Positions 5,709 through 10,749 of a stretch of DNA of 11,345 nucleotides are shown here, piece by piece. This DNA comes from Collinsella aerofaciens. GTDB taxonomy: Bacteria; Actinomycetota; Coriobacteriia; Coriobacteriales; Coriobacteriaceae. The translations under genes and the position numbers were made by a program. Under the pieces are notes generated by a model. It had not been told where the DNA came from and made no database searches. It saw only the letters and a program-made list of their open reading frames with translations. Position 1 is the first letter of the stretch. Each line of letters opens with the position of its first letter. Where the stretch lies: contig RKAY01000133.1 in the NCBI GenBank assembly GCA_014846205.1, forward strand, positions 1 to 11,345, in the 5' to 3' direction.

Positions 5709-7136
5709 CTAGGAGACGACGCCCGTCGCGTTGCCGATAACGACGACAACGAACATAACGGCAAACATAAACCCGAGCGCTTTGAACCATAGTTCGACAA
5801 AGGCGCCTCCCCGATACCGATCGAGCACGGGAAAGCGACGCCGAAGCCCGCGGCGGTCGAGCATACCAAACGTAATAAGCAGCACCAAGCCATCGACCAT
5901 AAAGAAATACTCAAGCGCCAAAAACCACGTTGGATAGTTGCGGTTTTCACCTGTCGGCTGAAACACAGCAAAATGGCTCCCCATCAGGAGCAGCAGCGTC
6001 GTCGCATAAACGCATCCATTCCATATGCGCCCCACAGGCTCGGGAATATGCGAGAGCAGGCTTACGCACTTGGACGCCAAGGGCTCGGACGCCGAGGACG
6101 AGATAGTCGAATGCTGACTTGTAGAAGGCGAAAGCGCAGGGGCAACCGGTTGCTGCACCCGATGCACTTGCGGCACCGCGGTCCGGGACACGGCGGCGGC
6201 AGGAGCCGTTGTGAGCGACGACGCAGGGGCGCACAAGCCGTACGCTGTGCGCGCAGCATTGCCCAACGCCTTTGCACTTGCAAAACGTTTGGCGGGATCG
6301 AGCGCCATCGCCATGTAAATCACATCCGTCAGCGGGACGGGAATGCCATGCGCCTCGCATTGCTCGCGCATGTCGCGCCCGGGTTTGGGATCAGCCACCG
6401 TCAGGCAGAAGAACAGCAGCGCGCCGAGCGCATAAATATCGCTACGCACACTCGTCTGCCCAAAACCGTACTGTTCGGGCGGCGCATAGGAACGCGTGCC
6501 AAACTTAACGGTATCGGCATCGGCACCGTCACGCCAGACACGCGCGATCCCCAGGTCGATAATCACCAGCGACGAGAAGGTCATGCCAGCATCGGGCGCA
6601 TAGTTCGCGCCCGACACGATGATATTCGAGGGCTTCAGATCGCGGTGAATCACCGGCGCAGCCATCTCCCCCGCCGACGCAAAGCCGGCATGGAGCTCGG
6701 CAGCCGCATCGCAAAGGGCGCCAAACAGCTCGCAAGCATAATCGGGCGTCGCGCCCAAACGCCCCACGAGCGCCTCGAGCGTCTCACCTTCGACATATTC
6801 CATCACCACATCGAGTTCCTCGCCCGCGCGGCGGCAGTCGACGATCCGGGGTAAGTGTTCAAAACGGCGTCCGGCCTGCTGAGCCGCAAACAGGCGCTCA
6901 TAGGCCCCGCCAATTTGAGCCGAAGCATCGATGCGCTTGCGGACAAAGGGACCAAGCGAGCCGCCGCCAGAGCCCTCAAAGTACACAAGCTCGGTTGTCT
7001 CGACATCGGAGCGCTTGAGCACGCGCTCTACGCGATAGCTATCATCACGCTCGAGCGACGCCAGGTGCCCGGCGAGCGCGGCGGTTAACTCATCATCGGA
7101 ATATGTTGGGTTCTGAGTATCCATGGCGTCCATCAT
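5709..7136 (-). CDS. Membrane-anchored Ser/Thr protein kinase
   Basis: This is a Hanks-type kinase with 475 residues from the ATG at 7136. The kinase domain covers about 35-300. The N-lobe Lys is probably K67 in FVRKRI and the hinge is VMEYVEGETLE. The catalytic loop is HRDLKPSNI (H164-D166, K168), the metal-binding DFG is DLG (194-196), and the activation segment ends in FGTRSYAPPEQ with SDIYALG after it. No canonical GxGxxG loop is visible: the region holds EGSGGGSLG after a RVERVLKRSDVETTEL stretch. After a Ser/Ala/Pro linker (about 305-365) come three hydrophobic segments (about 374-392, 404-424, 451-470). There are no PASTA repeats. The start is uncertain: a GTG at 7154, ATGs at 7136 and 7133, and an ATG at 7124 are possible, none with a good ribosome site, and the GTG falls inside a hairpin. 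The gene follows the HTH gene by 67-85 bases and belongs to its operon. Confidence 0.9.
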   Translation of the reverse strand: MMDAMDTQNPTYSDDELTAALAGHLASLERDDSYRVERVLKRSDVETTELVYFEGSGGGSLGPFVRKRIDASAQIGGAYERLFAAQQAGRRFEHLPRIVDCRRAGEELDVVMEYVEGETLEALVGRLGATPDYACELFGALCDAAAELHAGFASAGEMAAPVIHRDLKPSNIIVSGANYAPDAGMTFSSLVIIDLGIARVWRDGADADTVKFGTRSYAPPEQYGFGQTSVRSDIYALGALLFFCLTVADPKPGRDMREQCEAHGIPVPLTDVIYMAMALDPAKRFASAKALGNAARTAYGLCAPASSLTTAPAAAVSRTAVPQVHRVQQPVAPALSPSTSQHSTISSSASEPLASKCVSLLSHIPEPVGRIWNGCVYATTLLLLMGSHFAVFQPTGENRNYPTWFLALEYFFMVDGLVLLITFGMLDRRGLRRRFPVLDRYRGGAFVELWFKALGFMFAVMFVVVVIGNATGVVS

Positions 7137-7140
7137 AGCG

Positions 7141-7174
7141 CAGGGCGCGGACACCCCATGGCATCCACGCCCTG
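7141..7174 (-). promoter_or_regulatory. Hairpin just ahead of the kinase start
   Basis: In the minus-strand RNA, CAGGGCGUGGA pairs with UCCGCGCCCUG, giving an 11-bp stem with one G-U pair and a 12-base loop. It ends four bases before the ATG at 7136. It could limit ribosome access or stabilise the kinase part of the message. No T run follows, so it is not a typical terminator. Confidence 0.5.
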
Positions 7175-7221: not shown

Positions 7222-7644
7222 CTAACTCACCGTCTCCTCGCCAAAGCGATACAGTTCCTCGTTGACCTTTTGCAGGCTGCAGCCGCGATCGATACAAAAG
7301 ATGACAATCGCATCGCGACGGTCCTTACAGTTGAGGACGCTTACCCCGGCAGCCGTCAGAGCGCGGTTGGTCTCCTTGAGCGTCAACGCCATCGCAAAGG
7401 CAATCTGCAGCACCTTATTACGGCTTGGGTGGCGCGCACCGGTAAAAATTTGATAACCAAAGGTCTCGTTGAGGTCGGCCATGCGCACCACGCGCGAACG
7501 CTCTAAGCCCTTTTCCTGCAGCAGCTGCTTAAGGTAGTCCGAAAGCGACGGGGCGGCAAAGTCGTGTTCTTTGATATAGCCATCGATGTTTGGCGCGTCG
7601 AGGAGCTCATTGAGCAACTCGTCCGTCAGCTTTTTATCGGGCAT
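7222..7644 (-). CDS. HTH (XRE-like) protein encoded beside a Ser/Thr kinase
   Basis: The product is a 140-residue cytoplasmic protein. Residues about 35-95 (LSDYLKQLLQEKGLERSRVV, then FGYQIFTGARHPSRNKVLQIAFAM) have the pattern of a lambda-repressor-like helix-turn-helix, with the GARHPSRN segment in the place of the turn after the recognition helix. The C-terminal 45 residues (ALTAAGVSVLNCKDRRDAIVIFCI) are not typical of classical XRE repressors. They match a small family I recall being encoded next to Ser/Thr kinases in Clostridia and Coriobacteria. A role as kinase partner or substrate, or as transcription factor, is inference. The start is well supported by GGGAGGTGA nine bases upstream of the ATG. 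It sits 39 bases after the lipoprotein stop and ahead of the kinase gene. Confidence 0.75.
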   Translation of the reverse strand: MPDKKLTDELLNELLDAPNIDGYIKEHDFAAPSLSDYLKQLLQEKGLERSRVVRMADLNETFGYQIFTGARHPSRNKVLQIAFAMALTLKETNRALTAAGVSVLNCKDRRDAIVIFCIDRGCSLQKVNEELYRFGEETVS

Positions 7645-7683: not shown

Positions 7684-8226
7684 CTAGGCCAGCACCCAGC
7701 TTGCAGTGGCAGACTTATCAAACATGTTGGCAAAATACAGTGCCTTCTTGATATCGCCGGCAAAGTAGATATTGCCCGCCACGGAGCCACCGGCGGCAAG
7801 GGTACCAGACTGCAGCTCATCGGAGCCCTCGCTGTAGTAACCCTGATTCTGTTGAGCCCCGTTGGCGTCCTCGCCCTTCCAGTCGTAGATATTGTAATCT
7901 GCGCCCTCATCGCCATTGTTGACGTACGTGACGTGAATGCCCGTCATGGTCGAACCGTCAAAATTTGTGAGGCCGGGCTGAACGGAATCGACAACGACGG
8001 AAAGGCCGGCAGCCGTGGTCACCGTCGCACCAACCGCCAGGTCAGTCGTAGACTGCTCTTTCTTCTTCGTCTCTTCCTTCTTGTTGCCATCGCCAGCGTC
8101 CTCGGTGACGGTCGCCTTATCGCTACCACAACCGGCAAGAAGACCGGCAGTCCCCAAGGCGACGGTGGCGAATGCGCCCAGTGCAGCGCGACGGCTCAAC
8201 AGCACTTCGTTTTCGAGCTTTTTCAT
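7684..8226 (-). CDS. Lipoprotein with Tat-like signal and DUF4352-like domain
   Basis: The product is a 180-residue surface lipoprotein. The signal has paired arginines (LSRRAALGAF, residues 10-19), compatible with Tat export, and a lipobox LLAGC with C33 as the lipidated residue. A charged Lys/Glu/Thr linker (about 38-62) leads to a small beta-rich domain (about 63-180). Its pattern VTYVNNGDEGADYNIYDW, then SGTLAAGGSVAGNIYFAGD, resembles DUF4352/MPT63-like immunoglobulin-type domains, whose ligands are mostly unknown. AGGAAGGAT seven bases ahead of the ATG is the ribosome-binding site and is buried in a leader stem. It is the first gene of the operon that continues into the HTH protein and the membrane kinase. 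Acting as an extracellular sensor for that kinase is an inference. Confidence 0.82.
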   Translation of the reverse strand: MKKLENEVLLSRRAALGAFATVALGTAGLLAGCGSDKATVTEDAGDGNKKEETKKKEQSTTDLAVGATVTTAAGLSVVVDSVQPGLTNFDGSTMTGIHVTYVNNGDEGADYNIYDWKGEDANGAQQNQGYYSEGSDELQSGTLAAGGSVAGNIYFAGDIKKALYFANMFDKSATASWVLA

Positions 8227-8231
8227 TATGC

Positions 8232-8285
8232 ATCCTTCCTACGATCCGGCTACCGCGCCGGCACACAGCACATCGTAGGAAGGAT
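8232..8285 (-). promoter_or_regulatory. Leader hairpin sequestering the lipoprotein ribosome-binding site
   Basis: A perfect 14-bp inverted repeat (8232-8245 with 8272-8285) encloses 26 bases that themselves hold CCGGC/GCCGG (8246-8250 with 8257-8261). In the minus-strand transcript the 3' arm is ATCGUAGGAAGGAU, which contains the Shine-Dalgarno element and ends five bases before the AUG at 8226. Once transcribed from the proposed promoter, the site would be closed unless melted. It does not look like a terminator because no T run follows. Confidence 0.65.
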
Positions 8286-8320
8286 TAAAGTTGAATTCAT
8301 TAGCTGAGAGCTAAGGTTGC

Positions 8321-8349
8321 CATATAGAAGAGCATGAAGCGCGTGTCCA
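8321..8349 (-). promoter_or_regulatory. Candidate promoter of the lipoprotein-HTH-kinase operon
   Basis: On the minus strand, TGGACA (8344-8349, five of six matches to TTGACA) and TATATG (8321-8326, four of six) are exactly 17 bases apart. Transcription would begin near 8313, giving a leader of about 87 bases that contains the whole 14-bp hairpin. TTAGCT-GAG-AGCTAA (8300-8314) covers the predicted start and could be an operator or a first small hairpin. Confidence 0.4.
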
Positions 8350-8680
8350 TCGCCGATAACGCCTCGAGGCTTGCCAACATTGATTTGAACTACTGGTTCT
8401 ACGGCTGCAGCGCCTTGTCTCGATTTCCGACATGACGAATCCGCACGACGTGGTCCATGCGGACGACGACGCTCTCGAGCATGCCCTGCACGCTCGATGC
8501 TCACACGAGCTCGACAGAATCCTGGTAGATTCAGGCTAAGAACCGCCCAAGGGTCACATGGGCCCGACCACATTCAACAACCGCAAGGCCATCGTGGGCG
8601 GCAATGACACGGCCTGTGACTCAAAGCAGACGAGCACGCGATACGCCGCGACGACGGCGAGGGGCAGGCGGGCTAGCTGA
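8334..8680 (+). pseudogene. Possible decayed plus-strand gene, identity unknown
   Basis: An ATG at 8334 opens a 33-codon frame (MKRVSIADNASRL...) ending in TGA at 8433-8435. A second frame, readable from before the ATG at 8432 (LVSISDMTNPHDVVHAD...), runs to TAA at 8537-8539. The same frame then stays open (GPTTFNNRKAIVGGNDTA...) until TGA at 8678-8680. Codon use with G/C in third positions looks coding-like throughout, so one ancestral gene broken by a frameshift and a stop is plausible. The minus strand is also open across 8554-8800, so orientation is not certain. I do not recognise the product. Between 8681 and 8824 I see only a weak 6-bp inverted repeat at 8740-8760. Confidence 0.3.
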
Positions 8681-8824
8681 CGGCTGGATGAGGCTTGAAA
8701 CTGCACCAAATAGCACCCCTGACGGCTGCGCAGACGTCTTTCCTGCGCTGCTGCCAGGAATGAGTGCGCCGCCCCAGCGGTGCAGGCTTGGCGTTGGGCG
8801 TAATGGCGCGCAGCAAGAACCGGC

Positions 8825-9322
8825 CTACCCCTCATTGAGATATTGCCTTCGGTCGGCCATGTGCTTTCCGGCGAGGGAACTTCCATGACGCAGTCCGTCC
8901 GAAATCGTCTCTCGGAAATAGTCGTCTTTCTCATCGCAGAGATTCTCGAGCTCCACCACTCGCGATGCCAAACGGTCTGAGACCTCGCGCTCTATTACGA
9001 GATCGTCTGACAGCTGAGCGTTTTCTTCCGTCAGCCGAGTATTCTTTTCCAGCAGCTGATCTTTCTCATGCGAGTTGTTGGCAACGTAGGCGACAGCCCC
9101 AATGGCAGCCGCCCAGGCGACAATCTCCTTCTTATGTTCTTTGACGAGTTGGACGGCTTTCGCTGCGCCCTCCCTAACGATATCGGGAATGGCTTCCACC
9201 TTTTCTCGGGTAGCCTGCATGAGAGGCTTCTTTTCCGCATCGTCATGCTCAAGGTCGGTTTCCGTCAGCATTGTCTTCACGTTCTCTTCCTGCTGCTCGT
9301 CCTTGAGCTCGAACTCTTCCAT
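8825..9322 (-). CDS. Unidentified protein with one membrane segment and a coiled coil
   Basis: The product is a 165-residue protein I cannot assign. Residues 1-35 are strongly acidic. Residues 36-66 form a probable amphipathic helix. A short hydrophobic stretch at 67-81 (IVAWAAAIGAVAYVA), preceded by KEHKKE, looks like a single membrane span with the N-terminus inside. A Glu/Leu-rich coiled coil follows (about 86-130, QLLEKNTRLTEENAQLSDDL), and then a polar tail (RHGSSLAGKHMADRRQYLNEG). The start is supported by GGAGG six bases ahead of the ATG, and a TAAAAT (9352-9357) further upstream could be a -10 box. It lies alone between two stretches of decayed plus-strand sequence. Intact codon structure and a good ribosome site suggest a live gene. 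A role in the envelope or as an accessory-element protein is open. Confidence 0.7.
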   Translation of the reverse strand: MEEFELKDEQQEENVKTMLTETDLEHDDAEKKPLMQATREKVEAIPDIVREGAAKAVQLVKEHKKEIVAWAAAIGAVAYVANNSHEKDQLLEKNTRLTEENAQLSDDLVIEREVSDRLASRVVELENLCDEKDDYFRETISDGLRHGSSLAGKHMADRRQYLNEG

Positions 9323-9426
9323 TTCAGCCTCCGTTCCTTCCTCTTTAGCGTATTTTACCCCGTGTTTTAGGCCGATTACTCAGTTGCCAGCTGATTTGTG
9401 ACCGCAGCGGATAATGCACTCGCAAG

Positions 9427-9747
9427 TTGACCTATGTCCTGCCAGGAGGTCCAGTGGAGTCTATTGCAGTGACGCTCATCGGCGTCACTGCAACACCGAT
9501 CGGAGTGGCCGAGTCCAACTCGCGCAGCCGCGCGGTTATGGAGCTCAAGATGGACGAGCTCGCATCGAGCGAGCCTACAAACTCGAGCAGGAAATGGCCG
9601 TGGTCAAGGTCGACGTTGACGCGCTTTTGCGATGAGCTGGCATGGGGACTGGCGATCGCGACCTGTATCCCCGTGTTGCTGGCGGCGGCGCTCTCACGCC
9701 AAACGCCTGTACATTCGGATTGCTACACAACGAATGAAACTTGTTGA
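9427..9747 (+). pseudogene. Relic of a prophage XhlA-like small membrane protein gene
   Basis: Two reading frames must be combined to recover the protein. The first frame gives a hydrophobic start (VESIAVTLIGVTATPIGV) followed by SNSRSRAVMELKMDEL. At about 9555-9563 the coding frame moves to another frame that gives IERAYKLEQEMAVVKVDVDAL, ending in TGA at 9633-9635. The first frame then resumes with DELAWGLAIATCIPVLLAAAL. The order of N-terminal membrane segment, S-R-S-R-A, MELK.DEL and ERAYKLEQ..AV matches the small membrane proteins next to holin and endolysin genes in prophages of Gram-positive bacteria. The usual RRVEKHN-like stretch between DEL and IERAYKLEQ appears to be missing. No start codon with a good ribosome site is visible. 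I conclude that this is a decayed copy; the remainder of 9748-9810 shows nothing I recognise. Confidence 0.5.
9464..9493. repeat. Perfect 12-bp inverted repeat inside the prophage relic
   Basis: TTGCAGTGACGC (9464-9475) and GCGTCACTGCAA (9482-9493) are separated by TCATCG. The stem is perfect and stable, but no T run follows on either strand, so a terminator role is unlikely. Confidence 0.7.
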
Positions 9748-9810
9748 TGTGGGACGCGGTTCATTCAGGGTCCGTCCCCCTCGCTTCATCCTCAAGAAGC
9801 TCGTCGAAGC

Positions 9811-10128
9811 TTACCCCACCGTGACGGGTTCCCCGGTAAAGGTGCTTACAAGCAACAGGATAAAGAAGGCTAAATAGCTGATGCTCATTAGGTAGGCGAC
9901 AACCAAAAAGATGGTCCATCCAACATTGGTCTTACCATCGGCACGACGTTGCTCACGAGAACGGCACAGCCAGACCGTCACGCCAATGGCCACAATCAAC
10001 AGCACAAGTGCTGCCGCAGCCAGTCCAGCAAGCGCAAACATCACGCCAATGCTCACAGCAATAACCGGGAGCAGCAGCAAGCCGCACCCACCCGGACTAT
10101 ACACGGCAGTCTGTCGGCGCTTCATCAT
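9811..10128 (-). CDS. Small multi-span membrane protein downstream of higBA
   Basis: The product is about 105 residues, almost entirely hydrophobic. A short basic start (MMKRRQTAVYSPGG) is followed by two membrane segments (roughly 15-55), a basic loop (CRSREQRRADGKTN), and a further hydrophobic stretch of one or two spans (WTIFLVVAYLMSISYLAFFILLLV). I do not recognise a family. Tandem ATGs at 10128 and 10125 follow GAGG and GGAG elements; a GTG at 10155 is less likely because it overlaps the upstream stop region. The gene starts about 26 bases after the higA stop on the same strand, so cotranscription with the toxin-antitoxin pair is likely. Whether it has a role in that system or is only carried along is unknown. 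Confidence 0.65.
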   Translation of the reverse strand: MMKRRQTAVYSPGGCGLLLLPVIAVSIGVMFALAGLAAAALVLLIVAIGVTVWLCRSREQRRADGKTNVGWTIFLVVAYLMSISYLAFFILLLVSTFTGEPVTVG

Positions 10129-10154: not shown

Positions 10155-10496
10155 CTACAATGCAATAGCCTGCTGAACGGGAACAATCTTATCCAGTTCC
10201 GGCTCGATGCGTCTCTTCTCCGCCTCGAGATCAAACGCTATCTGAGCGCGCAGCCAATAACCATCCGTCAGGCCAAAGTAGCGGCAAAGGCGAAGGTCGG
10301 TGTCGGCCGTCACACGACGCCTTCCCAAGATAATCTGTCCAATGCGTTGAGCCGGAATCCCGGTCTCCTTAGCAAGGCGATATTGAGAAATGCCCATAGG
10401 GACAAGAAAATCCTCTTTGAGAAGCTCACCAGGAGTCACCGGCGGCAGCAAATCGGACGCAGTCTCATCACTTGTGATAATCGACGATTTCGACAT
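10155..10496 (-). CDS. higA: HigA-type antitoxin
   Basis: This is the antitoxin of a HigB/HigA pair; it neutralises the toxin by binding and normally represses the operon. From the ATG at 10496 it has 113 residues. A short N-terminus leads into PVTPGELLKEDFLVPMGIS, the standard HigA/VapI opening, then an XRE helix-turn-helix (QYRLAKETGIPAQRIGQIILGRRRVTADTDLRL, about 38-70). A helical tail (YFGLTDGYWLRAQIAFDLEAEKRRIEPELDKI) follows. The frame is open upstream to 10550, but the ATG at 10496 gives the normal family N-terminus. It lies 29 bases inside the 3' end of higB in another frame, so translation is probably coupled to the toxin; no strong ribosome site of its own is visible. The order toxin then antitoxin is the usual one for this family. 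Confidence 0.9.
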   Translation of the reverse strand: MSKSSIITSDETASDLLPPVTPGELLKEDFLVPMGISQYRLAKETGIPAQRIGQIILGRRRVTADTDLRLCRYFGLTDGYWLRAQIAFDLEAEKRRIEPELDKIVPVQQAIAL

Positions 10497-10749
10497 TCCA
10501 AGCCATCCCCTGTCTCCACTCAAAACAGACCCGATAGCGCTCATTGACACGGATACTATATTGACCGGCGCGATCGCCCTTCAACGCTTCAAGACGATTG
10601 CCTGGCGGAACGCGAAGATCATCAAGCGAAGCGCAGATTTGCAGTTGGCGAATCTTCCTCAAGGCGACCCGCTCAAAAGGAATGAACTTCCTAATCCGCG
10701 CACCCATTGCAAGGCGTTCAGTGTCTTCATCTTTATATGATGCAATCAT
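10468..10749 (-). CDS. higB: HigB-type toxin (RelE/ParE superfamily mRNA interferase)
   Basis: HigB toxins cut mRNA on the ribosome when released from HigA. The 93-residue product has the full family pattern. It opens MIASYKDEDTERL, where the family usually has IxSFxDxxTExLF. The helix KIRQLQICASLDDLRVPPGNRLEALKGDRAGQYSIRVNERYRVCFEW and the C-terminal VEIVDYHK follow. The Arg residues of SIRVNERYR and the terminal His of DYHK are in the positions of the active-site and RNA-contacting residues of the family. AAGGCG lies about five bases ahead of the ATG, and a perfect TATAAT at 10801-10806 lies 52 bases upstream. Length and motifs are complete, so it is likely functional. Confidence 0.92.
   Translation of the reverse strand: MIASYKDEDTERLAMGARIRKFIPFERVALRKIRQLQICASLDDLRVPPGNRLEALKGDRAGQYSIRVNERYRVCFEWRQGMAWNVEIVDYHK

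What the first reader, a model, noticed from the sequence alone, without database searches (positions are those of the whole stretch)
8232..8285. Ribosome-binding site of a signalling operon buried in a 14-bp perfect leader stem
The arms 8232-8245 and 8272-8285 are exact inverted copies, and the 3' arm in the minus-strand RNA contains AGGAAGG, the Shine-Dalgarno element of the lipoprotein gene. A candidate promoter with 17-base spacing at 8321-8349 would place the whole stem in an 87-base leader. This is a strong design for translational control: a ligand-binding RNA, a thermometer-like element, a small-RNA target or a leader opened by a protein. A nested GCCGG hairpin in the loop could offer a second fold. 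It resembles no riboswitch class I know.
Basis: partly seen in the sequence, partly recalled or inferred. Interest (0 to 1): 0.7.

Follow-up and report, generated by a model that had tools for sequence, protein, structure and literature searches.

The report
Promoter that silences read-through RNA

Summary
The conserved promoter overlaps the stem: palindrome 8300-8314, -35 ATGAAT, 17 nt, then -10 TACGAT (8277-8272) inside the 5' arm. In Collinsella the -10 lies exactly 22 nt after the palindrome; the combined pattern occurs in 128 of 395 genomes of the order. The predicted start (about 8265) is in the loop. The promoter's own mRNA therefore lacks the 5' arm (SD predicted 0.82 open), whereas RNA from upstream holds both arms (0.00 open). 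Across loci with unrelated arm sequences, the -10 region pairs with its own SD better than with swapped SDs (window locus excluded; best window z -7.3, 94 loci). The excess is strong where the upstream gene is co-directional (49 loci, 0 of 20,000 permutations) and weak where it is opposite (34 loci, 531 of 20,000). In four sister genomes with an opposed neighbour the 5' arm is mismatched while -10 and SD are kept. Best reading: a promoter-embedded anti-SD that silences read-through RNA. No start site or translation was measured.

The parts
8300..8314 (.). 15-bp palindrome TTAGCT-N3-AGCTAA, candidate operator, centred near -42 of the predicted start
   Evidence: 35 of 43 genus genomes hold TTAGCTNNNAGCTAA; with -10 at fixed spacing in 128 of 395 genomes of the order
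8295..8300 (-). -35 element ATGAAT (first base shared with the palindrome), 17 nt before the -10
   Evidence: ATGAAA or ATGAAT at this place in 68 of 102 loci
8272..8277 (-). -10 element TACGAT, inside the 5' arm
   Evidence: hexamer with at least 4 of 6 consensus matches exactly 22 nt after the palindrome on every operon-facing strand listed
8262..8268 (-). predicted transcription start region (about 8265)
   Evidence: inferred from the -10; not mapped
8272..8285 (-). 5' arm: anti-Shine-Dalgarno, promoter DNA, present only in read-through RNA
   Evidence: pairing; promoter position, folding by 5' end
8246..8261 (-). nested hairpin CCGGC-GCGGTA-GCCGG in the short 5' UTR
   Evidence: kept in 22 of 22 leaders
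8232..8245 (-). 3' arm, contains the SD AGGAAGG (8240-8234)
7684..8226 (-). first gene: lipoprotein-like protein with DUF4352 match
   Evidence: replaced by another small membrane protein behind the same leader in 17 of 21 genomes
7222..7644 (-). helix-turn-helix protein with predicted XRE-type domain, candidate regulator
   Evidence: orthologues in 40 of 43 genus genomes; pLDDT 90.9; best folds DdrO and C.AhdI, none at E <= 0.001
5709..7154 (-). protein kinase (Pkinase) gene
8825..9322 (-). nearest codon-scored upstream reading frame, co-directional; a possible source of read-through
   Evidence: its coding stretch ends 537 nt before the palindrome

Best explanation
The inverted repeat is a promoter-embedded anti-Shine-Dalgarno that silences read-through RNA. 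SHOWN by sequence: a palindrome, -35 and -10 at fixed spacing precede this operon in Collinsella, the combined pattern recurs through the order, and in the window the -10 lies in the 5' arm. INFERRED: transcription starts in the loop (about 8265), so the operon's own mRNA lacks the 5' arm and its SD is open. SHOWN by statistics: in loci with unrelated arm sequences the -10 region is more complementary to its own SD than to swapped SDs, mainly where the upstream gene is co-directional. INFERRED: RNA running in from upstream folds the -10 copy onto the SD, so the first gene is translated only when its own promoter fires. INFERRED, weaker: the operon's HTH protein binds the palindrome and controls the promoter.
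For: Fixed -10 spacing found without asking for it (30 of 56 strands have at least 4 of 6 at +37, among them every operon-facing strand listed; the other 26 have 0-3). Order-wide pattern, 128 of 395 genomes against one hit of the reversed control. Swap test 0 of 20,000 over 102 loci; 5 of 20,000 for 20 Collinsella loci; 0 of 20,000 for 82 others. Excess peaks at positions 32-51, over the -10 at 37-42, and is gone from 44 on. Predicted SD openness 0.59 in own-promoter RNA, 0.34 in read-through RNA; 55 of 102 loci drop by more than 0.2, 1 rises. Orientation: co-directional z -7.1 (49), opposite z -2.0 (34); start-anchored test z -7.7 (51), +0.2 (34), ordinary genes -0.9 (144) and -1.1 (103). 18 of 18 loci with a co-directional neighbour keep 14 standard pairs; 4 of 4 with an opposed neighbour have three mismatches in the 5' arm with -10 and SD core kept. 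Precedent in phage T4.
Against: No start site, read-through or translation is measured. Absolute SD pairing is no stronger than at 268 ordinary genes (mean -13.1 against -13.7, p 0.82); 62 of 268 of those and 19 of 102 palindrome loci reach -17. Many palindrome loci show no excess. Collapsed by genus the orientation contrast weakens (p 0.012 with Collinsella split by species, 0.09 strictly by genus). A longest-ORF orientation call gave no difference (p 0.42). Loci with no clear upstream gene also show some excess (16 loci, z -2.7), as do opposite loci in the aligned test (z -2.0). Pairing on the antisense strand gives nearly the same excess (z -6.4 against -7.1; paired p 0.064). No double compensatory change within the aerofaciens-type clade.
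Confidence: 0.7

Rival explanations
1. One reading: the whole stem lies in the operon's own leader and acts as a riboswitch, thermometer, sRNA target or protein-opened translational switch.
For: Stable SD-burying stem, kept in 18 of 22 compared leaders with all 14 pairs standard.
Against: The conserved -10 lies inside the 5' arm; the proposed upstream promoter is not conserved nor listed by the scan; no Rfam family; the excess follows upstream-gene orientation.
Confidence: 0.12
2. DNA-level constraint: the -10 region and the region before the start codon resemble inverted copies because of promoter or mutational biases, or act as a DNA structure, without RNA pairing being selected.
For: Pyrimidine stretches recur before the -10 (matches); antisense pairing shows nearly the same excess.
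Against: Swapping SDs between loci lowers pairing; the effect depends on upstream orientation; arm substitutions in the aerofaciens-type clade all keep G.U on the mRNA strand; 67 G.U in sense against 44 in antisense duplexes.
Confidence: 0.1
3. The long RNA is not a leak but a second regulated transcript: with the first SD closed it serves only the HTH and kinase genes, so two promoters set the ratio of first gene to downstream genes.
For: Fits every sequence observation that supports read-through silencing; in some loci the HTH is itself the first gene.
Against: No conserved second promoter upstream of the palindrome was seen; not tested further.
Confidence: 0.08

Closest known systems
Phage T4 gene e (lysozyme) (PMC3014915, passages seen)
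   Same: Longer transcripts form an RBS-inhibiting structure; transcripts from late promoters immediately upstream lack the 5' portion and are well translated; related phages have the late promoter in the region coding the 5' strand.
   Different: Phage, late-promoter timing, measured about 100-fold effect. Here a chromosomal operon, a palindrome promoter, an order-wide recurrence with changing arm sequences, and no measurement.
T4 I-TevI, segB and Aeh1 mobE homing endonucleases (PMC2988022, passages seen)
   Same: A late promoter placed so that late transcripts lack enough sequence to form the RBS-hiding hairpin.
   Different: Mobile phage genes in long early transcripts; here signalling operons next to unrelated neighbours, and dependence on neighbour orientation.
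IS10/IS50 protection of transposase from outside transcription (recalled; my searches gave no passage on it)
   Same: RNA entering from outside is thought to hide the transposase start.
   Different: Mobile element ends; not compared here.
Riboswitches and RNA thermometers
   Same: SD occlusion by a stem.
   Different: Here the 5' arm is predicted to be absent from the promoter's own mRNA; no Rfam match.

Membership tests
T4-type promoter-in-hairpin translational control | stem in the long RNA hides the RBS | tested here: met
   predicted only: SD openness 0.00 for 5' ends at 8285 and upstream
T4-type promoter-in-hairpin translational control | a promoter lies in the DNA of the 5' strand so its RNA lacks that strand | tested here: met
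   conserved -10 at 8277-8272 inside the 5' arm; start not mapped
T4-type promoter-in-hairpin translational control | transcription enters from upstream on the same strand | tested here: inconclusive
   co-directional upstream frames in 18 of 18 loci of the clade and no terminator-like site on the operon's strand in 8200-9900; no RNA data
T4-type promoter-in-hairpin translational control | long RNA is translated much less than short RNA | not testable with these tools
   needs reporters
Known riboswitch or thermometer family (Rfam 15) | match at the family's gathering score | tested here: not met
   0 matches in the window
Intrinsic terminator | GC-rich stem followed by a run of T | tested here: not met
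   no T run follows either arm (sequence); scan lists none there
Sigma-70-type promoter with a regulator site near -42 | -10 and -35 at 16-18 nt spacing with conserved operator | tested here: met
   -10 at fixed distance, ATGAAA/ATGAAT 17 nt before it in 68 of 102 loci
Sigma-70-type promoter with a regulator site near -42 | a regulator binds the palindrome | not testable with these tools
   an HTH relative lies downstream at 63 of 89 order sites: association only

The most novel reading that the evidence does not exclude
Bacterial chromosomes can insulate a regulated gene from its neighbour at the level of translation: selection writes an anti-Shine-Dalgarno into the promoter's own -10 region, so that only RNA started at that promoter can be translated, and the feature is kept or lost with the orientation of the upstream gene.
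Probability: 0.6. Interest if true: 0.82.

Novelty: new variant of a known kind. Interest (0 to 1): 0.68.

Why it matters
Promoter DNA would carry information for an RNA that the promoter itself never makes: a -10 region selected both for polymerase and for pairing with the SD. That gives a simple, testable answer to how tightly controlled genes avoid leaky expression from co-directional neighbours, and it predicts gain and loss after inversions. It also points to an apparently uncharacterised order-wide palindrome promoter in front of an HTH-kinase signalling operon of gut Coriobacteria (none of my listings, among them, named it).

Tried and rejected

Results against or neutral: no double compensatory change within the aerofaciens-type clade, only G.U-keeping ones. 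Longest-ORF orientation gave no difference (p 0.42). Absolute pairing equals background. A background sample (150 of 268 genes) gave one window at z -3.0, which fell to -1.2 with all 268. Control windows: one upstream window (-30) z -2.8, coding window +10 z +3.3. Loci without a clear upstream gene: z -2.7, 16 loci.

Rows dropped before the swap test: 7 of 89 order sites (L171, L172, L173 with misassigned starts, two without a reading frame, two with a start beyond 165 nt); 82 kept. The 20 Collinsella loci were picked by hand after I had seen some pairings by eye; one (G031) had its leader end set 3 nt short. The aligned tests need leaders long enough, so n varies (94-101 near the peak; 100 of 102). 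The orientation tests leave out 16 loci with no clear upstream gene.

HTH: no PDB sequence relative with the profile, no NCBIfam match for the window's protein, only a sub-cutoff Pfam HTH match. Papers whose passages I saw and set aside: PMC9413887, PMC12802891, PMC4265352, PMC8450116. Literature searches that ran; judged from titles and starts of abstracts, and searches listed only part of what they found (10 of 1,341 and 15 of 42). Scripts that gave nothing: error; time limit; empty through a loading error.

Full report
What is there. The window comes from Collinsella (its closest named relatives are mostly C. aerofaciens records). On the minus strand an operon runs lipoprotein-like gene (DUF4352), HTH gene, protein kinase gene. 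Upstream of the ATG at 8226 the arms 8285-8272 and 8245-8232 pair perfectly over 14 bp and bury AGGAAGG.

Where transcription starts. A 105-nt leader query has strong hits (E 2e-26 or better) in 21 of 43 genus genomes; further hits are weak, E 0.004 or more. The gene behind the leader is the lipoprotein in 4 of the 21 and an unrelated small membrane protein in 17. Conservation ends just upstream of a palindrome TTAGCT-N3-AGCTAA at 8300-8314, so the promoter proposed at 8321-8349 is not shared. The palindrome alone, with no -10 asked for, occurs in 35 of 43 genus genomes. Read against the HTH matches, 33 of the 35 have it within about 1.3 kb upstream of the HTH gene on one contig; G007 is split between contigs and G036 has no close HTH. 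Among 56 distinct strands next to palindromes in fetched genus loci, 30 have a hexamer with at least 4 of 6 matches to TATAAT exactly 22 nt after the palindrome, including every operon-facing one listed; the other 26 have 0-3 there. ATGAAA or ATGAAT sits 17 nt before that -10 in 68 of 102 loci. The combined pattern occurs in 128 of 395 genomes and 35 of 123 genera of the order, against one hit of the reversed control; that control does not test the spacing, which rests. An HTH relative lies within the fetched 2 kb downstream at 63 of 89 order sites. In the window the -10 is TACGAT, 8277-8272, inside the 5' arm; the predicted start, about 8265, is in the loop.

Pairing of the -10 region with the SD. 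Other clades show the same arrangement with other letters: CCCTTTCCCTATATT facing TAGAGGGAAAGG in G041 and G042, CTTTCCAATAA facing TTATTGGAAGG in G023. I therefore asked whether each -10 region pairs better with its own SD than with SDs of other loci. Over 102 loci the native mean is -11.36 and the permuted mean -9.82 kcal/mol, 0 of 20,000 permutations as low; 20 Collinsella loci give 5 of 20,000, 82 others 0 of 20,000. With the window left out, 16-nt windows show z -6.6 (positions 32-47, 98 loci) and -7.3 (36-51, 94 loci), where the -10 is 37-42; z is -2.9 at 40-55 (79 loci) and there is no excess from 44 on. Control windows upstream of the palindrome mostly show none (one, at -30, has z -2.8), and coding windows show none. 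Folding predicts the SD 0.59 unpaired in own-promoter RNA and 0.34 in read-through RNA over 102 loci; RNA from the palindrome's end gives 0.38, and six rounds of chimeras with swapped promoter segments 0.46-0.50. In the window SD openness is 0.00 for RNA starting at 8285 or further upstream, 0.03 at 8282, and 0.63-0.82 for 5' ends from 8279 to 8260.

Orientation of the neighbour. If the pairing silences read-through RNA it should matter where the upstream gene points the same way. With codon-scored upstream genes, co-directional loci have a mean excess of -3.31 kcal (26 of 50 below -3, window included), opposite ones -0.54 (3 of 34), loci without a clear gene -1.59 (4 of 16 below -3); one-sided p 8e-4 for the first two. 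Swap tests without the window give z -7.1 (49 loci, 0 of 20,000) and z -2.0 (34 loci, 531 of 20,000); one co-directional locus per genus (18) gives 9-62 of 20,000 in three draws. A start-anchored test gives z -7.7 (51) and +0.2 (34), and -0.9 (144) and -1.1 (103) for ordinary genes. The co-directional signal stays without genera g44, g66, g67, g69, g75 (33 loci, z -3.8) and in Collinsella alone (9 loci, z -3.0). Collapsed by genus the contrast weakens (p 0.012 or 0.09), and a cruder orientation call missed it (p 0.42). A natural comparison fits: 18 of 18 aerofaciens-type loci (window and L020-L036) have a co-directional upstream frame and 14 standard pairs, each arm substitution going to G.U; in 4 of 4 sister loci (L037-L040) the upstream gene is opposed and the 5' arm has three in-register mismatches although TACGAT and GGAAGG are kept. 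A bulged pairing of about 11 bp remains possible in those four (my reading of the letters), and which state is ancestral is unknown.

Mechanism. The best reading is that the 5' arm is promoter DNA copied into RNA only by polymerase arriving from upstream. Such RNA hides the SD; RNA started at the promoter does not. Phage T4 does this for gene e (PMC3014915, passages) and for I-TevI, segB and mobE (PMC2988022, passages). Nine literature searches (titles and starts of abstracts seen) listed no bacterial chromosomal case, but most subscription papers are not held and two lists were cut. Likely but untested: the HTH protein, modelled at pLDDT 90.9 and nearest in fold to XRE-type regulators such as DdrO and C.AhdI (no match at E <= 0.001), binds the palindrome near -42.

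Limits. No start site, read-through or translation is measured. Absolute SD pairing at these loci equals that of ordinary genes; the claim rests on the native-versus-swapped excess, its position over the -10 and its dependence on orientation. The feature is missing at many palindrome loci, and the sense strand is only slightly favoured over the antisense strand.

Noticed in passing
7684-8226; loci L021, L024-L034, L036-L040: The first gene is exchanged behind an almost unchanged leader: lipoprotein in 4 of 21 genomes, an unrelated small membrane protein in 17; further kinds of first gene occur in the order.
   Followed up: partly
G129:C8:121222-121292 (L127), G151:C4:22895-22965 (L134), G018:C3:1647244-1647314: One palindrome can carry a -10 at the right distance on both strands, so it may serve two divergent promoters.
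   Followed up: no
L230 (G029:C20) and L111 (G036:C92): The palindrome-plus-22-nt promoter also stands before other genes away from the HTH-kinase operon, which suggests a small regulon.
   Followed up: no
8320-9815: The window and L017/L022 carry about 1.5 kb of different, partly decayed-looking sequence where other homologues have the DUF2304-like gene directly upstream.
   Followed up: partly
10155-10749: HTH_3 gene with an overlapping small frame at 10468-10749 that looks like a HigB/RelE-type toxin by eye; its Pfam scan failed on another entry and was not repeated.
   Followed up: no
1255-1287 and 9464-9493: Two further perfect inverted repeats of 13 and 12 bp with 7- and 6-nt loops.
   Followed up: no
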